NCBI RefSeq assembly: GCF_900625105.1 | Contig: NZ_UYYD01000001.1 | Location: forward strand, 620,001-684,000 | Length of the DNA: 64,000 nt | Source: Agathobaculum sp. Marseille-P7918 | Lineage (GTDB): Bacteria > Bacillota > Clostridia > Oscillospirales > Butyricicoccaceae | Reading direction: 5' to 3' | Part shown: piece by piece, positions 47,951 to 55,124 of the stretch | How the letters are laid out: each line of letters begins with the position of its first letter | Position numbering within the stretch: position 1 is the first letter of the stretch | Translations under genes and position numbers: made by a program | The notes under the pieces: generated by a model | Seen by the model: the letters and a program-made list of their open reading frames with translations, nothing else | Told to the model about the DNA's origin: nothing | Database searches by the model: none

Positions 47951-50035
47951 TTATTCCTTATTGAGCGCTTCCAGTCTCGCCTTGTTTTCCGCGATGACCT
48001 TTTCCTGCACCTGTGCGGGCGCTTCGTCGTACCGCTCAAACTTGGACACGAACGAACCGCGGCCCTGCGTCATCGAGCGCAGCGTGATCGCGTAATCGCC
48101 CAGCTCGGCCATCGGGCACTCGGCCAGGATCTCCTGCTTGCCGCCTTCGATCGGGTTCATGCCCATGATGCGGCCGCGGCGCTTGTTGAGGTCGCCGATG
48201 ACGTCGCCCATGTAGGAATCGGGCACAACAACCTTCATCGAGCAGACCGGCTCGAGCAGAACCGGGCTTGCCTGCGGGATGCCCGCCTTGTACGCCAGAC
48301 GCGCTGCCATCTTGAAGGACAGTTCGTTGGAGTCTACATCGTGGTAAGAGCCGTCGAGCAGGGTGGCACGCAGGCCGACCAGCGGATAGCCCGCCAGCAC
48401 GCCGTGCTCCATCGCCTCGCGGATGCCCTTATCGACTGCCGGATGGAAGTTCTTCGGCACCGAACCGCCGAAGATCTTCTCCTCGAACAGGTAATCGCCT
48501 TCCGGATACGGCGCAAATTCCATCTTGACGTGACCGTACTGGCCATGGCCGCCGGACTGCTTCTTATGCTTGCCTTCGACTACGACCGTCTTGCGGATCT
48601 TCTCGCGATACGGCACGATCGGCGGCGTGAGCGCCACTTCTACGCCGAACTTATCCTTCAGCTTGGAGCACAGGACGTCCAGATGGATATCGCCCGCGCC
48701 CGAAATGGTATGCTGCTTGGTTTCCGGATTGAACTCGGTCTCGAAGGACGGGTCCTCGTCGTGCAGACGGGACAGGCCCGCGGAGATCTTCTCTTCCGCG
48801 CCCTTCACCTTCGGGGCGATGCCCTGCGTGTAGCACGGCGGCGCGAACTCGATCGGCTCGAGTTCGACCTTGCGCACGCTCATCGACAGCGTGTCGCCGG
48901 TCTTGGTGGTCACGAGCTTGGAAACCGCGCCGATATCGCCGCAGCCAACCACCGGCACTTCGGTGGTCTTTTTGCCGCAGACCGTGTAGATGTGGCCCAT
49001 CTTTTCGTTGGCGTCCGCGCGCTTGTTGACCAGCGTCATGTCCTGCTTGACTTCGCCCGACATGACCTTGAAATACGAGAAACGACCGTACTGGTCGGCG
49101 ACCGTCTTGAATACGAATGCACAGGTCGAGCCGTTGGGCGTGCAGTTGATCTCGATCAGTTCGCCCTTCTCGTCCTCGCAGATCTCAACCGGCTTTTCAT
49201 CCGGGGACGGCATGTAATCCGCAATGCCCTTCAAGAGCGCATAGGAACCGATGCCGGTGACCGCGGTGCCGCAGAATACCGGCGCGATGACCAGGTCCTT
49301 AACGCCCTGACGGATGCCGGCGATCAGCTCTTCATCCGAGAACTCTTCGCCCGCAAAGTAGCGTTCCATCAGCTCTTCGGACAGCTCAGCGACGTTTTCG
49401 CACAGCGCCGCGCGGTGCTGGTCGATGCGGTCCTTCATATCGTCCGGGATCGGGATCTCGACGCGCTTGTTGCCTTCCATACGGTACGCCTTGCGGATGA
49501 CGCAGTCCACGATGCCGACGGTATCGCGGTTGCCTTCAAAGATCGGCACGACGATCGGCGCAACCGATACGCCGAACTGCTTCTGCAGCTTGTGCAGCGA
49601 GGTATAGTAATCCGAGTTTTCCTCGTCAATTTTGGAGATGTAGAACATGCGCGGCATCGCATGCGCTTCGCAGCGCTCCCACGCCTTTTCCGTGCCGACG
49701 CCCGGGCCGGACTTGCCGGTGGCGATGATGAGCGCGGACTCCGCCACGCGCAGGGCACAGTTTACTTCGCTTTCAAAATCAAAAAAGCCCGGAGTATCCA
49801 GCAAATTGATTTTGCAGCCGTTCCATTCAACCGGCGCCACAGCCGTCGAAATCGAGAACTGACGCTTAATTTCTTCGGGGTCGAAATCGCAAACCGTGTT
49901 GCCGTCCGTGATCTTGCCGACACGGTCGGTTACACCGGCGATATTGAGCATACTTTCGACGAGCGAGGTCTTGCCGTCGCCGCCGTGTCCCATCAGACAT
50001 ACGTTACGAATCTTGTTAACCGGGTAATTGGCCAT
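47951..50035 (-). CDS. elongation factor G-like GTPase (EF-G paralogue)
   Basis: A 694-residue translational GTPase with all five EF-G domains. G1 is GHGGDGKTSL (16-25) and G3 DTPG (80-83), but G4 is SKID (134-137) in place of NKID. GHGG...GKT with DGNTVCDFDPEEIKRQFSI marks the EF-G-like subgroup seen in many Clostridia and Thermotogae next to a normal fusA. Domain IV has HGQYGHVKMEF and the C-terminal VVPDSYMGDVIGDLNKRRGRI is intact. The gene stands alone, away from rpsL/rpsG. Translocase activity is not assured. Confidence 0.92.
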   Translation of the reverse strand: MANYPVNKIRNVCLMGHGGDGKTSLVESMLNIAGVTDRVGKITDGNTVCDFDPEEIKRQFSISTAVAPVEWNGCKINLLDTPGFFDFESEVNCALRVAESALIIATGKSGPGVGTEKAWERCEAHAMPRMFYISKIDEENSDYYTSLHKLQKQFGVSVAPIVVPIFEGNRDTVGIVDCVIRKAYRMEGNKRVEIPIPDDMKDRIDQHRAALCENVAELSEELMERYFAGEEFSDEELIAGIRQGVKDLVIAPVFCGTAVTGIGSYALLKGIADYMPSPDEKPVEICEDEKGELIEINCTPNGSTCAFVFKTVADQYGRFSYFKVMSGEVKQDMTLVNKRADANEKMGHIYTVCGKKTTEVPVVGCGDIGAVSKLVTTKTGDTLSMSVRKVELEPIEFAPPCYTQGIAPKVKGAEEKISAGLSRLHDEDPSFETEFNPETKQHTISGAGDIHLDVLCSKLKDKFGVEVALTPPIVPYREKIRKTVVVEGKHKKQSGGHGQYGHVKMEFAPYPEGDYLFEEKIFGGSVPKNFHPAVDKGIREAMEHGVLAGYPLVGLRATLLDGSYHDVDSNELSFKMAARLAYKAGIPQASPVLLEPVCSMKVVVPDSYMGDVIGDLNKRRGRIMGMNPIEGGKQEILAECPMAELGDYAITLRSMTQGRGSFVSKFERYDEAPAQVQEKVIAENKARLEALNKE

Positions 50036-50389: not shown

Positions 50390-50454
50390 ATTTTTCTCTC
50401 TCTTTTTTCACCGCCCCGGGCGGATTTTTCTCCTAACTGTTTGCCGAAACGGCA

Positions 50455-50498
50455 AAAAGCAGGTCCGGACCTTTTGAGGTCCGGACCTGCTTTTTTTA
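50455..50498. terminator. bidirectional terminator
   Basis: AAAAAGCAGGTCCGGACC, TTTTGA loop, GGTCCGGACCTGCTTTTTTT. It serves the micro-protein (+) and the P-type ATPase-like gene (-). Confidence 0.93.
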
Positions 50499-50504
50499 TT
50501 TTTC

Positions 50505-52832
50505 TCAATGGGTCTGCTGCGTGATGATGAACACCGGGAGATACCAGATGAGCAAATACAGCAGCAAATGCAGCACCGGCAGCGCATCGACCGCGTTCTG
50601 TGCGACCAGATACGCAACGATCAGCATGCCGCAGACGCCCGCGAACGCGCCCAGCGTCAGCGCGGAGCGCACCGCGCCGGCCAGCTTGTCCGCGCAGCGC
50701 AGCACCTGCACAAAGGCGCCCGCGCCTTCGCGCGTCAGGATTGCCGCGGGGGCGTCGCCCTCGGCATACTTGGGATCGAGCAGCCGCGCCACACCGGCCG
50801 GATCGGGCTGGTCGGCAAAGCCGCGGCGCAGATCGAATTCCTCTTCCACCATCGCGGGCGAAATATTGAAGTCGCGCACCGCTAGCACCGCATTCATATG
50901 CATGCGGCGCATCATGCGCATCGCGCGGTAAGTATGCTTGGTCGGCTGGTAGCGCAGCGTCAGCACGCCGGCCAGCGTGTTGTCCACCACCAGATACGAG
51001 CAGACCTGCTCGCCCTGGCCGGACGGAATCCGGATGCCGAGCTTGACCATCAGCGCCGCCGTGCCCAGAATGACATGGCTTGTGCCGATATCGCCCGTCA
51101 GGCCGCCTTCCACTTCCTGCACGTTGCGCGCGGAAAGCGTCACGCCGTAGCGCTCACGCGTGGCGTCGGTCAGCACGCGGCCCAGCTCCAGACCGGCCGC
51201 ATCCGCCACCGCCGCCGCACAGGCCAGCACCTTATCATCCGACAGGCGGCCCATATTTTGCAGCGACTCGAGCGAAATCGAACCGGACGGGAACAGATCG
51301 TTCTCGGTCAGCACGACTTCCTCGGTGCCGCGCAGCAGATTGGCCTGCCGCGCACCCGCGATCGCCGCGCCGGACGCGAGCAGACGGCGGGATACGTTCT
51401 TATAGCTTGCGCCGAACGCGCAGATCAGGCCGAGCGGGGCGGAAACCGACAAGATCGCGGAAAACGCCCAGAAAAAGCGTACGGGATCGCCGCGGCCCAC
51501 CGAAGCGAGCAGCGCAAAAATGATAGAAGCCGCCAGCGCGACCGGCACATAGATCATGGAGAAACGATCCACCGTGTCCGGGCGCTCCATCTCGGTCAGG
51601 AAGGCTTCTTCCGCATGCAGCGGACCCTTGACCGCGCGGCAGGCGTCGTCCTCCGCGTCATAGTGGCTGTAAATCGCCGCGGGCTGCTCGGCCGAGCAGA
51701 TTGCCTGATACGCGCGCGCCCGCGCCGCGAAGCGGCCGCGCTCCTCGCGCATCGCCGCGTACAGCAGCAGGATGCTGACCGCAAGATACGGCACCTTGAC
51801 ACCGGACTGGCTGTCAAAAACGATCATGGATGCGCCGTGCAGCATCGCCGCGAGCACCGCGAACGACACGAGCGACGCGCGATCGGGCATGCCGTGCAGC
51901 AGGTTGTAAAAGCCCATGCCGAACACGTCGATGCCGATGAACAGCGCGACAAATTGCAATAGCAGCAGCACACCGATGCCAATGGTCGGGTTTTCAATCA
52001 CGTCGATCACAACCGGCACCGGCAGTGCGTCAAAGCTGGGGGCAAGGCTGAGATAAGCCGCCGCCGCTGCCAGCAGCAGCACGATGATCGAGCGCGCCGT
52101 CAGACCCTGTGCGCGGCGCTTGAACGCGCGCTGCGCCTGCTGCGGGTCGCGCAGCTGGATCTCCTCTTCCTCCTCGGCCTGTTCGGCCGCGATACGCGCC
52201 GCGCGTGCTTCCTTGCGCGACATTTTGGCGCCGCGGGCGGCGCGTTTGGACGCCGCAGGCGCTTGCTGCGGCATCTCTTCCGGCAGATCCGGCACATCGT
52301 CGAACGCCTCTTCCGCTGCGGCCGCGGCCTGCTTGGCTGCGAGCTTGGCCTCGCGTTTGGCCTGACGGGCTGCCGCCTTGGCCGCCGCCTTTTCCTGACG
52401 GGCCGCAGCTTTGGCCTCGCGCGCGGCAATACGGGCGGCGCGCTCGTCCTGTTCCGCTTCCTCAAAGGCGGTCAGGTCGGGAATCTGCTCCTCTTCCGCC
52501 TCGGCCTTGCGCGCGGCGCGCTTTTTCGGCGCGGTGCGCGGCGCGGCCTGCGGCTCGGGCGCCGCTTCCTGTACGGGTGCGGCCTGCACCGGCTCCGCCT
52601 CGGATTTGCTCTGTTCTTTCACCTGTACCCGCGGCGCGGCCTTGGGTGCCTCCGGTGCGGGCGCTGCCTTGGGCATCTCGGGCGCGGGACGGGACGCGGT
52701 GCGCGGCTGCGCCGGGGCGCCGCCCTCGACCTCCGCGATGATCGAATCCAGATCGAACGCGCCGTCGTCCGGGACGTCGCTGAGCATCGCCTTGATCGCT
52801 TCCAGATTCATGGTTTCGTCTTTTCTGTCCAT
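50505..52832 (-). CDS. P1B-type ATPase-like membrane pseudoenzyme with charged N-terminal extension
   Basis: A 775-residue protein. Residues 1-245 are polar: FDLDSIIAEVEG near the start, a Pro/Ala part, then Ala/Arg/Lys/Glu-rich helices. About eight hydrophobic helices follow in P1B order: four (247-362), two (425-475), a cytosolic block (476-715), then two (about 716-770). In the block GASYKNVSRRLLASGAAIAGARQANLLRG is followed by VVLTENDLF (506-513), where active pumps have VVFDKTGTLT; LAGVLTLRYQPTKHT (620-634) resembles the pre-TGDN strand, but TGDN itself reads AVRDFN. CPx is replaced by SAPLG and TGE is not seen. I infer a catalytically dead relative; function unknown. Start ATG at 52830-52832, 22 bases after rlmB. 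Confidence 0.75.
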   Translation of the reverse strand: MDRKDETMNLEAIKAMLSDVPDDGAFDLDSIIAEVEGGAPAQPRTASRPAPEMPKAAPAPEAPKAAPRVQVKEQSKSEAEPVQAAPVQEAAPEPQAAPRTAPKKRAARKAEAEEEQIPDLTAFEEAEQDERAARIAAREAKAAARQEKAAAKAAARQAKREAKLAAKQAAAAAEEAFDDVPDLPEEMPQQAPAASKRAARGAKMSRKEARAARIAAEQAEEEEEIQLRDPQQAQRAFKRRAQGLTARSIIVLLLAAAAAYLSLAPSFDALPVPVVIDVIENPTIGIGVLLLLQFVALFIGIDVFGMGFYNLLHGMPDRASLVSFAVLAAMLHGASMIVFDSQSGVKVPYLAVSILLLYAAMREERGRFAARARAYQAICSAEQPAAIYSHYDAEDDACRAVKGPLHAEEAFLTEMERPDTVDRFSMIYVPVALAASIIFALLASVGRGDPVRFFWAFSAILSVSAPLGLICAFGASYKNVSRRLLASGAAIAGARQANLLRGTEEVVLTENDLFPSGSISLESLQNMGRLSDDKVLACAAAVADAAGLELGRVLTDATRERYGVTLSARNVQEVEGGLTGDIGTSHVILGTAALMVKLGIRIPSGQGEQVCSYLVVDNTLAGVLTLRYQPTKHTYRAMRMMRRMHMNAVLAVRDFNISPAMVEEEFDLRRGFADQPDPAGVARLLDPKYAEGDAPAAILTREGAGAFVQVLRCADKLAGAVRSALTLGAFAGVCGMLIVAYLVAQNAVDALPVLHLLLYLLIWYLPVFIITQQTH

Positions 52833-52853: not shown

Positions 52854-53627
52854 TTAATCGGCCTGCGTACGGCGACGCACGGTTTCAAACAGCAATACCG
52901 CCGCAGCGTTGGACGCATTGAGCGAGTTGACCCGGCCGCGCATCGGGATGCTGACGATATAATCGCACTTATCCCGCGTCAGGCGGCTGAGCCCCTGCCC
53001 TTCCGAACCGATGATGATTGCCGTGGGGCGGTCAAACGCGGCTTCGTACAGGCCGACCGTCCCGTCGGCCTCCGCGCCGAACAGCCACACGCCGCGCTCT
53101 TTGAGCTCGTCGAGCGTCGCGGCGAGGTTGTTTGCCTTGTGTACGCCGACATACGCCAGCGCGCCCGCCGCCGCGCGCGCAACTGCCGCGGTCAGTCCGA
53201 CCGCGCGCCGTTTGGGGATGATGACCCCGTGCGCGCCCGCAGTCTCCGCCGAGCGGATGATCGCACCCAGATTATGCGGGTCCTCAATGCCGTCGCACAC
53301 GACGATGAGCGGCGCTTCGCCGCGCTCCTGCGCCACGCGGAAGATATCGTCGAGCGAGACATATTCCTGCGCGGCCGCCTGCGCGATCACGCCCTGATGG
53401 TTGCCCGTCGGGCTCATATGGTCGAGCTTGCGGCGGTCACAGGTGACCACCGGAACCCCGTGCCGGCGCGCTTCCGCCGCCACGTCGCCGATGCGCGCGC
53501 CCTCGGCCACAAAGACCTTGTCCACCGCGCGGCCCGCGCGCAGCGTTTCGAGCACCGCATTGCGGCCTTCGATCAGCGTGCCGTCGTCCTCCCGCGGGGG
53601 ACGGCGTCTGTTTTTTTCATAAGCCAT
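52854..53627 (-). CDS. rlmB: 23S rRNA (guanosine-2'-O-)-methyltransferase RlmB
   Basis: A 257-residue SpoU-family methyltransferase for the 23S peptidyl-transferase loop (G2251 in E. coli). It shows the L30e-like N-terminal domain (IEGRNAVLETLRAGRAVDKVFVAEG) and the three SPOUT motifs NLGAIIRSAETAG, IIGSEGQGLS, and SIPMRGRVNSLNASNAAAVLLFE. The ATG at 53625-53627 follows GGAGCG. Usual neighbours (cysS, mrnC, sigH) are not here; it is cotranscribed with the ATPase-like gene. Confidence 0.95.
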   Translation of the reverse strand: MAYEKNRRRPPREDDGTLIEGRNAVLETLRAGRAVDKVFVAEGARIGDVAAEARRHGVPVVTCDRRKLDHMSPTGNHQGVIAQAAAQEYVSLDDIFRVAQERGEAPLIVVCDGIEDPHNLGAIIRSAETAGAHGVIIPKRRAVGLTAAVARAAAGALAYVGVHKANNLAATLDELKERGVWLFGAEADGTVGLYEAAFDRPTAIIIGSEGQGLSRLTRDKCDYIVSIPMRGRVNSLNASNAAAVLLFETVRRRTQAD

Positions 53628-53660
53628 ATTCCTACGCTCCAAAAAACCTTAGATATTGGC

Positions 53661-53690
53661 ATTATAGCACACTTTCCCCACCGGATTCAA
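53661..53690 (-). promoter_or_regulatory. sigma-A promoter of rlmB
   Basis: Minus-strand TTGAAT, 18-bp spacer, TATAAT, 34 bases before rlmB; the only clear promoter for rlmB and the ATPase-like gene. Confidence 0.82.
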
Positions 53691-53805: not shown

Positions 53806-55056
53806 TTACAGCGTCTGCTCCACGCCGTTGATGCGCGCGTGTTCCCCTTCCTCGAGCGGGATGAGCAGGCATTTCTGCCCGTCCACCACGTCCGCGCGGA
53901 TGCGGCCCGCCCGCTCCTGCGGCACATGCAGCTCGATCTCCGCGTCCTCATGCCACGGCGCGTCCTCGTCCGCACCGGCGCGCTGCGCGGCCTGCGTGGC
54001 CAGCTCCTGCTGCAAGACTGCCACCTTCTGCTCGAGTGCCGCCGTGTGCGCGCGGGCCGTGCCCTCGTCCACCAGCTTGCTGTCGAGCACGTTGTCCGCC
54101 ACGGGCGGCGTGTCGCCGAACACATGCGCATAGCTTTTTTCCATCTGCGCGCGCACCGCTTCCGGCACCTCCGCTTCGGTCGCCAGGCCGGACAGGGTTT
54201 CCGCCGTCAGGCTGACCGGCGGCAGGGACTCGTCCTCTTCCCGCTCGGCCACCATGCCGCTGATGGTTTTCTGGATCTGGAAAAAGGCGGCATCCGCCTG
54301 CTCCTCATCCTCCCCGAACGCGCCCAGCACCACGCTGCGGAACGCCTGCTTGTCCTCGGCCGCCGTGCGCTGCGGCACGCAGCCGAGCACCTGCTCGACC
54401 AGTTCCGGGTGCGAGCTTTTGCCGGTTTTGACATAGTACATCACGGCATTGACGTCGCTGCCGCGGTTTGCAAACGCCGGATAGACAAAGCCGAGGTCGG
54501 GCAGGCCGACCACCCAGTCGCGCACGCGCGCGCCGATGCGGTTTTCGTCCTCGCGGTAGCCCAGCGCGGGCTTGGACAGTTCAACCGGGCAGATCGCGCA
54601 CAGGATGTACTCGTAGATCTCCTCGGATTCGTCCTGTTCCTCGCCCGAGGTCGCCTTGCTCGGCACGTCGTAAATATCGTGATACACGAGGATCAGATAA
54701 TTGCCCGGATAGGCGTACTCCGCGATGATCTGCTCGTACAGCCGGTCGAGCAGCTCCTCGTTTCCCAGCTTGCTCTCCTTGAGCGCGAGTAAGTACTTCT
54801 GGTGCTCGGCCGCCGCATCATTGCGGTCGAACTCCAGTTCGAGCAGATTGCTGCCCAGCGTGCCCGACATGGTTTTCTTGGCGATCTCGAGATATTTGTA
54901 AAACTCGTCCTCCTCCAGCTCGGAAAAGGACTCGGTGAATTTGAGCACCACCTGTTTGCCGCTGTTGACGTAGCAGCCGCACATGCGGCCGAAGGTACAT
55001 TCGGTCTTTTTCAGACGGCGGCGCAGCTCGAGCACATCGCCCTTGGTGATATTCAT
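53806..55056 (-). CDS. DUF4317-family protein
   Basis: A 416-residue soluble protein of the clostridial DUF4317 family. The start MNITKGDVLELRRRLKKTECTFGRMCGCYVN, the repeated ELEEDEFYKYLEIAKKTMSGTLGSNLLEL and a YHDIYDVP-containing middle are typical. The C-terminal third is acidic with a coiled-coil stretch (AALEQKVAVLQQELATQAAQR). ATG at 55054-55056 with GGAGAGAAGC before it. Monocistronic. Function unknown to me; no catalytic motif is obvious. Confidence 0.88.
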   Translation of the reverse strand: MNITKGDVLELRRRLKKTECTFGRMCGCYVNSGKQVVLKFTESFSELEEDEFYKYLEIAKKTMSGTLGSNLLELEFDRNDAAAEHQKYLLALKESKLGNEELLDRLYEQIIAEYAYPGNYLILVYHDIYDVPSKATSGEEQDESEEIYEYILCAICPVELSKPALGYREDENRIGARVRDWVVGLPDLGFVYPAFANRGSDVNAVMYYVKTGKSSHPELVEQVLGCVPQRTAAEDKQAFRSVVLGAFGEDEEQADAAFFQIQKTISGMVAEREEDESLPPVSLTAETLSGLATEAEVPEAVRAQMEKSYAHVFGDTPPVADNVLDSKLVDEGTARAHTAALEQKVAVLQQELATQAAQRAGADEDAPWHEDAEIELHVPQERAGRIRADVVDGQKCLLIPLEEGEHARINGVEQTL

Positions 55057-55092
55057 GTTGCTTCTCTCCGTTCTTCCGGCCGCCGGACAGAA

Positions 55093-55124
55093 CAAAACCG
55101 CTTACCGGATGGATAAGCGGTTTG
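55093..55124 (-). terminator. terminator of the amidohydrolase gene
   Basis: AAACCGCTTATC/(G)ATAAGCGGTTT stem followed on the minus strand by TTGTTC; about 80 bases past the stop. Confidence 0.75.

What the first reader, a model, noticed from the sequence alone, without database searches (positions are those of the whole stretch)
50505..52832. A P1B-ATPase fold with every catalytic motif lost, fused to a charged helical extension
Helix order and sequence traces match a heavy-metal ATPase, but DKTGT is TENDL, TGDN is RDFN, CPx is SAPLG and no TGE is found. The gene is long, uninterrupted, has a terminator and is cotranscribed with rlmB, so it is not a decaying pseudogene. A 245-residue Ala/Glu/Lys/Arg-rich region with FDLDSIIAEVEG at the start is added. 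This looks like an ion pump converted into a membrane sensor, scaffold or lipid-acting protein, a strong candidate for an undescribed function.
Basis: partly seen in the sequence, partly recalled or inferred. Interest (0 to 1): 0.7.

Follow-up and report, generated by a model that had tools for sequence, protein, structure and literature searches.

The report
Dead copper pump kept order-wide
This gene makes a membrane protein that descends from a metal pump but has lost the parts needed to pump, and because almost every sampled member of one large bacterial order keeps a copy, usually next to the same rRNA-methylation gene, it probably does an unknown non-pumping job that matters to them.

Summary
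The 775-aa minus-strand ORF (50505-52832) is homologous to P1B metal ATPases: NCBIfam TIGR01525 E=9e-10; family profile against true P1B ATPases, probability 99.8, E=4e-28; against the LpCopA sequence, E=1.5e-30. The DKTGT, HP, TGD, GDGxND and CPx motifs are gone, and the A domain and the GDGxND segment appear deleted. It is not local decay: 228 of 245 genomes of the order carry it (180 of 185 good ones), DKTG and GDGxND occur in 0 of 86 distinct cores, and dN/dS is about 0.06 against close relatives. rlmB lies directly upstream in 46 of 49 loci with room. Class and phylum samples gave orthologues only in the order. The N-terminal arm carries a motif, [FY]S[LV][DE][DE]I[LI]AE[VF], in 27 of 51 members outside the genus, 0.01 expected. 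In one other order 5 of 14 genomes have an intact CopA directly after rlmB, a possible ancestor. I read it as a non-catalytic membrane scaffold or regulator. The partner is unknown, and no structure model was obtained.

The parts
50505..52832 (-). pseudo-P1B-ATPase ORF, 775 aa, stop codon included
52119..52832 (-). N-terminal charged, probably disordered arm, residues 1-238 (Ala 27.7%, Glu 13.9%, Pro 9.2%, Arg 8.4%, Lys 8.0%)
   Evidence: disorder inferred from composition
52728..52757 (-). short conserved motif FDLDSIIAEV, residues 26-35
   Evidence: 27 of 51 members outside the genus have the motif, 0.01 expected by shuffling
50508..52118 (-). core, residues 239-775: membrane helices and remodelled P/N region
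   Evidence: alignment A1, hydropathy, hhalign
51588..51752 (-). stub where the actuator (A) domain with TGE should be, residues about 361-415
   Evidence: long gap in hhalign and unmatched stretch in the LpCopA alignment
51429..51449 (-). M4 segment SVSAPLG in place of CPx; the helix proline is kept in 31 of 37 members
51282..51314 (-). VLTENDLFPSG in place of the DKTGT phosphorylation loop; family motif [DE]x[DE][LIV][FY]PxG
51171..51194 (-). GLELGRVL, the place of the HP motif of the N domain
51060..51110 (-). N-domain stretch EGGLTGDIGTSHVILGT; Gly590 present in 37 of 37 members
50856..50876 (-). RDFNISP in place of TGDN; family motif DxN[IVL][TS] (D 33 of 37, N 30 of 37)
50529..50564 (-). 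last helix LLYLLIWYLPVF; Trp763 in 36 of 37 members
52854..53642 (-). rlmB (SpoU-family rRNA methyltransferase), directly upstream
50454..50495 (.). terminator-like dyad, 19 pairs, between this gene and the EF-G paralogue
53661..53690 (-). promoter-like site before rlmB (10 of 12 matches, TG before the second hexamer)
   Evidence: a consensus match only
47951..50035 (-). EF-G paralogue (called fusA2 here), next gene downstream; found downstream in 31 of 50 loci

Best explanation
The gene encodes a conserved pseudo-P1B-ATPase of the window's GTDB order (Oscillospirales by my recollection). SHOWN by sequence: it is homologous to CopA-type P1B ATPases; the A domain, the phosphorylation loop, the HP, TGD and GDGxND motifs and the CPx cysteines are gone; the core is under strong purifying selection; and nearly every sampled genome of the order keeps it, mostly right after rlmB. 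INFERRED: it cannot autophosphorylate or pump. It works as a non-catalytic membrane protein: an eight-helix anchor with a remodelled cytosolic P/N module, marked by its own motifs [DE]x[DE]LFPxG and DxN[I/V][T/S], and a long flexible arm whose 10-residue helix-like motif [FY]S[LV][DE][DE]I[LI]AE[VF] captures a cytosolic partner. It would thus act as a scaffold, tether or regulator. It probably arose from an rlmB-linked copA that lost its metal-binding HMA domain and catalysis.
For: Ancestry: (best solved match LpCopA, E=1.5e-30; collinear pieces leave out the A domain and the GDGxND segment, though only the middle piece is strong by itself); 25 of 37 members match TIGR01525 at E<=0.001, best 1.3e-12. 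Motif loss is order-wide: DKTG 0 of 86 and GDGxND 0 of 86 distinct cores (near relatives and cut copies included), against 35 of 37 lower-scoring sequences, the other two being fragments of family members. Replacement motifs are conserved. dN/dS (NG86) 0.057-0.073 for five close relatives and 0.11-0.24 for three further ones, eight chosen of the loci held. Prevalence 228 of 245, 180 of 185 good genomes, 122 of 127 genera. rlmB upstream in 46 of 49: 18 of 18 in or near the genus, 28 of 31 elsewhere, and in 18 of 18 further loci that reach far enough. Arm motif 27 of 51, 0.01 expected, 0 of 45 in the later part of the arms; with the expression fixed, 7 of 19 loci fetched later and 0 of 144 other frames there. 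Origin: in one other order 5 of 14 genomes carry a CopA with all pump motifs directly after rlmB; the AU test does not reject a clade of the family with these CopAs (p=0.276) but rejects joining it with either pair of the order's own CopAs (p=0.037 and 0.003).
Against: No partner, localisation or phenotype is known. The arm motif was not found in 24 of 51 members, so it is absent or diverged there, and the expression was written after seeing many of these sequences. rlmB is not next door in 3 of 49 loci (L074, L076, L077). The family branch is very long (3.67 changes per column), so its place is unsure: the free tree puts it outside the rlmB-linked CopAs (dlnL 6.9), and 9 of 14 genomes of that other order lack the pairing. 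No structure model could be obtained, so the fold of the remaining P/N part is inferred from sequence. Pfam sees no P-type ATPase family in any of 37 cores at E<=0.001.
Confidence: 0.62

Rival explanations
1. A passive channel, metal or ligand sensor, or lipid scramblase: the membrane part still handles a substrate without ATP.
For: Eight-helix layout by hydropathy and alignment, M4 proline kept in 31 of 37, last-helix Trp in 36 of 37.
Against: At the two CPx cysteine sites Cys is seen in 2 of 37 and in none of those listed, and the M4 positions around the proline vary widely. Nothing in the data points to a substrate.
Confidence: 0.2
2. An unusual but active HAD-type enzyme in which [DE]x[DE]LFP serves as a shifted motif I.
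For: An acidic residue is conserved at 510 (D 24, E 11 of 37) and 512 (D 26, E 7 of 37).
Against: Glu replaces Asp at 510 in 11 of 37, the window's protein among them; the segment that would hold HAD motifs III and IV is missing; 0 of 86 cores have GDGxND.
Confidence: 0.05
3. A decaying pseudogene or local loss.
For: All pump motifs are missing; one relative (L080) has the gene split by an in-frame TGA and one (L091) lies in two frames.
Against: Uninterrupted here; dN/dS about 0.06 against close relatives; present in 228 of 245 genomes of the order, with DKTG and GDGxND missing in 86 of 86 cores examined.
Confidence: 0.01
4. A dedicated partner of the translation-related neighbours (RlmB, EF-G paralogue) that brings rRNA modification or a translation factor to the membrane.
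For: rlmB is next upstream in 46 of 49 and the EF-G paralogue downstream in 31 of 50 loci; five of six good genomes without this gene show no rlmB at E<=1e-40.
Against: Gene order alone; rlmB is widespread in the class where this protein was not found; the joint absence may be an assembly gap; in the window a terminator-like dyad separates the gene from the EF-G paralogue.
Confidence: 0.12

Closest known systems
CopA-type P1B-ATPases (TIGR01525, TIGR01511; structure 3rfu, listed as copper efflux ATPase, Legionella CopA by recollection)
   Same: Collinear membrane and P/N segments by profile; eight helices by hydropathy and alignment
   Different: No A domain, no DKTGT, HP, TGD or GDGxND, no CPx, no HMA domain seen; a long N-terminal arm with its own motif; order-wide, mostly after rlmB
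Degenerate P4-ATPase domains of apicomplexan guanylate cyclases (PfGCbeta; PMC6592433, passages seen)
   Same: A P-type ATPase module that lost most signature residues and is kept in a working protein; the paper cites a regulatory role for the ATPase domain in the Toxoplasma homologue
   Different: Eukaryotic, P4 type, fused to cyclase domains. The same passage says that the cyclase of GCbeta works without its degenerate ATPase domain, so it is a weak precedent for a regulator
FUPA families, functionally uncharacterised P-type ATPases (recalled; the term appears in the search listing)
   Same: P-type ATPases known from sequence only
   Different: As I recall, FUPA families keep the catalytic motifs; not compared here

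Membership tests
P1B-type (heavy metal) ATPase | Sequence homology to the family over the membrane and P/N regions | tested here: met
P1B-type (heavy metal) ATPase | DKTG phosphorylation motif | tested here: not met
   0 of 86 distinct cores; TENDL in the window
P1B-type (heavy metal) ATPase | A domain with TGE | tested here: not met
   domain falls in alignment gaps; TGE[SAP] in 1 of 86 cores (L076), there about 337 residues into the core, past the A-domain site
P1B-type (heavy metal) ATPase | GDGxND hinge motif | tested here: not met
   0 of 86; segment unmatched
P1B-type (heavy metal) ATPase | HP motif in the N domain | tested here: not met
   GLELGRVL in the window; no His among the residues listed at that site (36 of 37 members listed); [SEG]HP somewhere in 5 of 86 cores
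P1B-type (heavy metal) ATPase | CPx metal-binding motif in M4 | tested here: not met
   proline 31 of 37; Cys before it in 2 of 37; [CST]P[CH] somewhere in 2 of 86 cores
P1B-type (heavy metal) ATPase | Eight transmembrane helices with cytosolic loops | tested here: inconclusive
   eight strong hydropathy segments plus two weak ones in the N region; collinear alignment; no structure model
P1B-type (heavy metal) ATPase | ATP-driven metal transport | not testable with these tools
   needs biochemistry

The most novel reading that the evidence does not exclude
A copper pump gene linked to rlmB was converted, once, in the ancestor of a whole bacterial order into a non-catalytic membrane hub that recruits a cytosolic partner through a 10-residue N-terminal motif; this order-defining pseudo-ATPase is close to indispensable and may tie rRNA maturation or translation to the membrane.
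Probability: 0.2. Interest if true: 0.85.

Novelty: new variant of a known kind. Interest (0 to 1): 0.64.

Why it matters
Catalytically dead members of enzyme families often turn out to be regulators (general knowledge). I found no described conserved prokaryotic family of dead P-type ATPases in nine paper searches. This one is in nearly every sampled member of a large order, so it probably serves a core function. The arm motif gives a direct handle for finding its partner. It also warns that weak 'heavy metal ATPase' matches in these bacteria need not be pumps.

Tried and rejected
Rejected: local pseudogene. Rejected: an N-terminal tag shared by many proteins of the cell. A pattern scan of the window's own genome found 5 matches; in the frames read, the other four lie 211 to 500 residues into their frames. 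Among the open frames of the loci held (6631) the stricter expression matched outside the family rows in two: a 383-aa frame of L070, 89 residues in, and the split first half of a family member (L080).

Led nowhere: the RlmB tree was too weak to place the order with rlmB-copA relative to the window's order. Single-sequence search of solved structures gave only chance-like hits; the profile search worked. Pfam on 37 cores: no P-type ATPase family. Nine paper searches gave no paper on this family. The AU test of the family with all four of the order's own CopAs is confounded, since those four are not one clade; the pairwise tests stand in its place. Structure prediction: busy; accepted at 98; unfinished at 100, 102, 104, 106; failed at 110; tool switched off at 111. 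No fold search was possible.

Dropped before counts: true ATPases and fragments (L020, L021, L026, L028, L057, L080, L091, L098, L099) before the alignment; four members with a short or cut arm (L063, L080, L081, L222) before the motif count. The class and phylum surveys scored only the best few candidates per genome, used E<=1e-46 and 1e-40, and did not list most rows without a match, so a very diverged orthologue could be missed.

Full report
WHAT IS THERE. The ORF at 50505-52832 (minus strand) encodes 775 aa without interruption. It starts 21 nt after the rlmB stop codon and ends shortly before a terminator-like dyad of 19 pairs at 50454-50495; a promoter-like site lies before rlmB. Residues 1-238 are a charged arm (Ala 27.7%, Glu 13.9%, Pro 9.2%, Arg 8.4%, Lys 8.0%). 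Residues 239-775 form a core of about 537 residues; in 37 members the core measures 509-568. Hydropathy gives eight strong segments and two weak ones in the N region.

P-TYPE ATPASE ANCESTRY. The protein matches NCBIfam TIGR01525 (heavy-metal P-type ATPase) at E=9.1e-10, well below the model's cut-off, and Pfam PF00122 only at E=0.0045. In the window's own genome PF00122 finds five ATPases over its cut-off and this ORF at E=8e-4 below it. An alignment of 37 orthologue cores (A1) against 8 true P1B ATPases gave probability 99.8 and E=4.2e-28 over nearly the whole core. The same profile against PDB sequences gave copper and zinc pumps, best 3rfu (LpCopA) at E=1.5e-30. In that alignment three collinear pieces fit LpCopA 81-217 (9.8 bits), 335-612 (102.9 bits) and 656-711 (3.7 bits); only the middle piece is strong by itself. 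The unmatched stretch 218-334 is where the A domain with TGE lies, and 613-655 where the segment with GDGxND lies (domain places from established knowledge of CopA). In the hhalign comparison the DKTGT loop aligns with TENDLFPSG and the CPC region with SAPLG.

THE LOSS IS CONSERVED. Of 86 distinct family cores (close species and cut copies included) 0 have DKTG and 0 have GDGxND; of 37 lower-scoring sequences 35 have DKTG, and the other 2 are fragments of family members. TGE[SAP] occurs in 1 core (L076), [SEG]HP in 5, [CST]P[CH] in 2 and TGD in 14; in the window the TGD letters are LTGDI of the N domain, not the motif site; the other cases were not placed one by one. One member (L084) has DKTG in its arm, outside the core. 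In place of the pump motifs the family has its own, counted over 37 members: an acidic residue at 510 (35) and 512 (33), F or Y at 514 (35), P at 515 (35); D654 (33) and N656 (30); G590 (37); W763 (36). The M4 proline is kept in 31. Over the 86 cores, loose forms of the two new motifs match in 65 and 69, and in 0 and 2 of the 37 others. dN/dS (NG86) of the core is 0.057-0.073 against five close relatives and 0.11-0.24 against three further ones; these eight were chosen from the loci held.

DISTRIBUTION. In the window's GTDB order 228 of 245 genomes have a match at E<=1e-46 (180 of 185 good genomes, 122 of 127 genera), one each in the table except G495, where two pieces match. In an even draw of the class 17 of 391 genomes match, every one of the order; among the listed genomes without a match one (G389) is of the order, and 354 rows without a match were not shown. 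In the phylum draw 7 of 398 match: six of the order, and G756, a true ATPase with DKTGT. These surveys scored few candidates per genome with strict thresholds. Six good genomes of the order without a hit were checked (the five and G015): five show no rlmB at E<=1e-40 either, and the sixth (G448) has rlmB followed by this protein's N-terminus, cut by the contig end. Joint loss and assembly gap cannot be told apart for the five. The class and family names (Clostridia, Butyricicoccaceae) come from Agathobaculum records, the nearest named relatives; the order name Oscillospirales is recalled.

NEIGHBOURS. rlmB is directly upstream on the same strand in 46 of 49 loci with room: 18 of 18 in or near the window's genus and 28 of 31 elsewhere (exceptions L074, L076, L077). 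The EF-G paralogue is downstream in 31 of 50. In 18 of 20 further loci rlmB is also upstream; in the other two the fetched piece did not reach that far.

THE ARM MOTIF. In 51 members outside the window's genus with enough sequence, 27 carry [FYLIMV][STDNA][LVIM][DENQ][DESAN][IL][ILM]x[EDA][FVYILMA] in the first 130 residues of the open frame. Shuffling predicts 0.01 in all, and the later part of the arms has it in 0 of 45. This expression was written after many of the sequences had been seen. The stricter expression, fixed before 20 more loci were fetched, matches 7 of the 19 of them with an arm and 0 of 144 other open frames there. The consensus is [FY]S[LV][DE][DE]I[LI]AE[VF]. The remaining 24 of 51 show no match. 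All members in or near the genus whose N-terminus is held have FDL[DE]xIIAEV. That it is a binding helix is inference from its amphipathic pattern.

ORIGIN. Outside the order, the stretch after rlmB was fetched for 20 genomes of the class: 19 showed no match to the family or to P-type ATPases in the bases held (three of them short), and one (G076) an intact CopA with an HMA motif. In that genome's order (one family, 16 genomes searched) 14 have a detected rlmB; 5 of these have a CopA with TGE, CPx, DKTG, HP, TGD and GDGxND directly after it (HMA motif GMxCAxC in 4 of the 5), and 9 have no ATPase there. Comparing by eye the position lists for 80 genomes outside the window's order, 71 of which have a CopA hit, rlmB and CopA are neighbours in three, which are the three members of that order in the list; pairs split between contigs could be missed. 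The family is one clade (100/100) on a very long branch beside the CopA group. A clade with the rlmB-linked CopAs is not rejected (p=0.276, dlnL 6.9); clades with either pair of the order's own CopAs are rejected (p=0.037 and 0.003). So descent from an rlmB-linked copA is the best current reading, not a proof. An RlmB tree could not resolve the orders.

FUNCTION. Catalysis by the P-type cycle is excluded as far as sequence can do so: acceptor loop, A domain, nucleotide and Mg motifs are all missing. What is kept and selected is the membrane bundle, a remodelled P/N module with its own conserved positions, and the arm motif. I therefore favour a non-catalytic scaffold, tether or regulator (0.62), with a passive or sensing membrane role as main rival (0.2). 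A degenerate P-type ATPase domain kept in a working protein is known from PfGCbeta, but the same paper says that its cyclase works without that domain, so the precedent is weak (PMC6592433, passages). The partner is unknown; RlmB and the EF-G paralogue are candidates by gene order only.

LIMITS. No structure model was obtained. No expression, localisation or phenotype data were available. Nine paper searches found nothing on such a family; the library lacks most subscription journals.

Noticed in passing
L157, L170-L173 (G076, G110, G137, G164, G186): In one small unnamed order of the class an intact CopA lies directly after rlmB in 5 of 14 genomes; the pairing was seen in none of the 68 other genomes with a CopA hit.
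   Followed up: partly
L217, L220, L221 (same GTDB family): Arms of about 500-625 residues share a further motif, DIYYGLxL, near basic stretches.
   Followed up: no
L080 (G057), L091 (G047): The family gene is split by an in-frame TGA in L080 and lies in two overlapping frames in L091; real breakage or sequencing error in draft genomes was not decided.
   Followed up: no
window 50454-50495: Near-perfect 19-pair dyad followed by T on the plus strand and preceded by A, so it could terminate in both directions.
   Followed up: partly
window 53806-55095: DUF4317 protein (Pfam E=8e-118), a family of unknown function, upstream of rlmB on the same strand.
   Followed up: no
window 47951-50035: EF-G-like protein (GTPase domain, domains II-IV and C-terminus by Pfam), next to the pseudo-ATPase in 31 of 50 loci; what this EF-G paralogue does is not clear.
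   Followed up: partly
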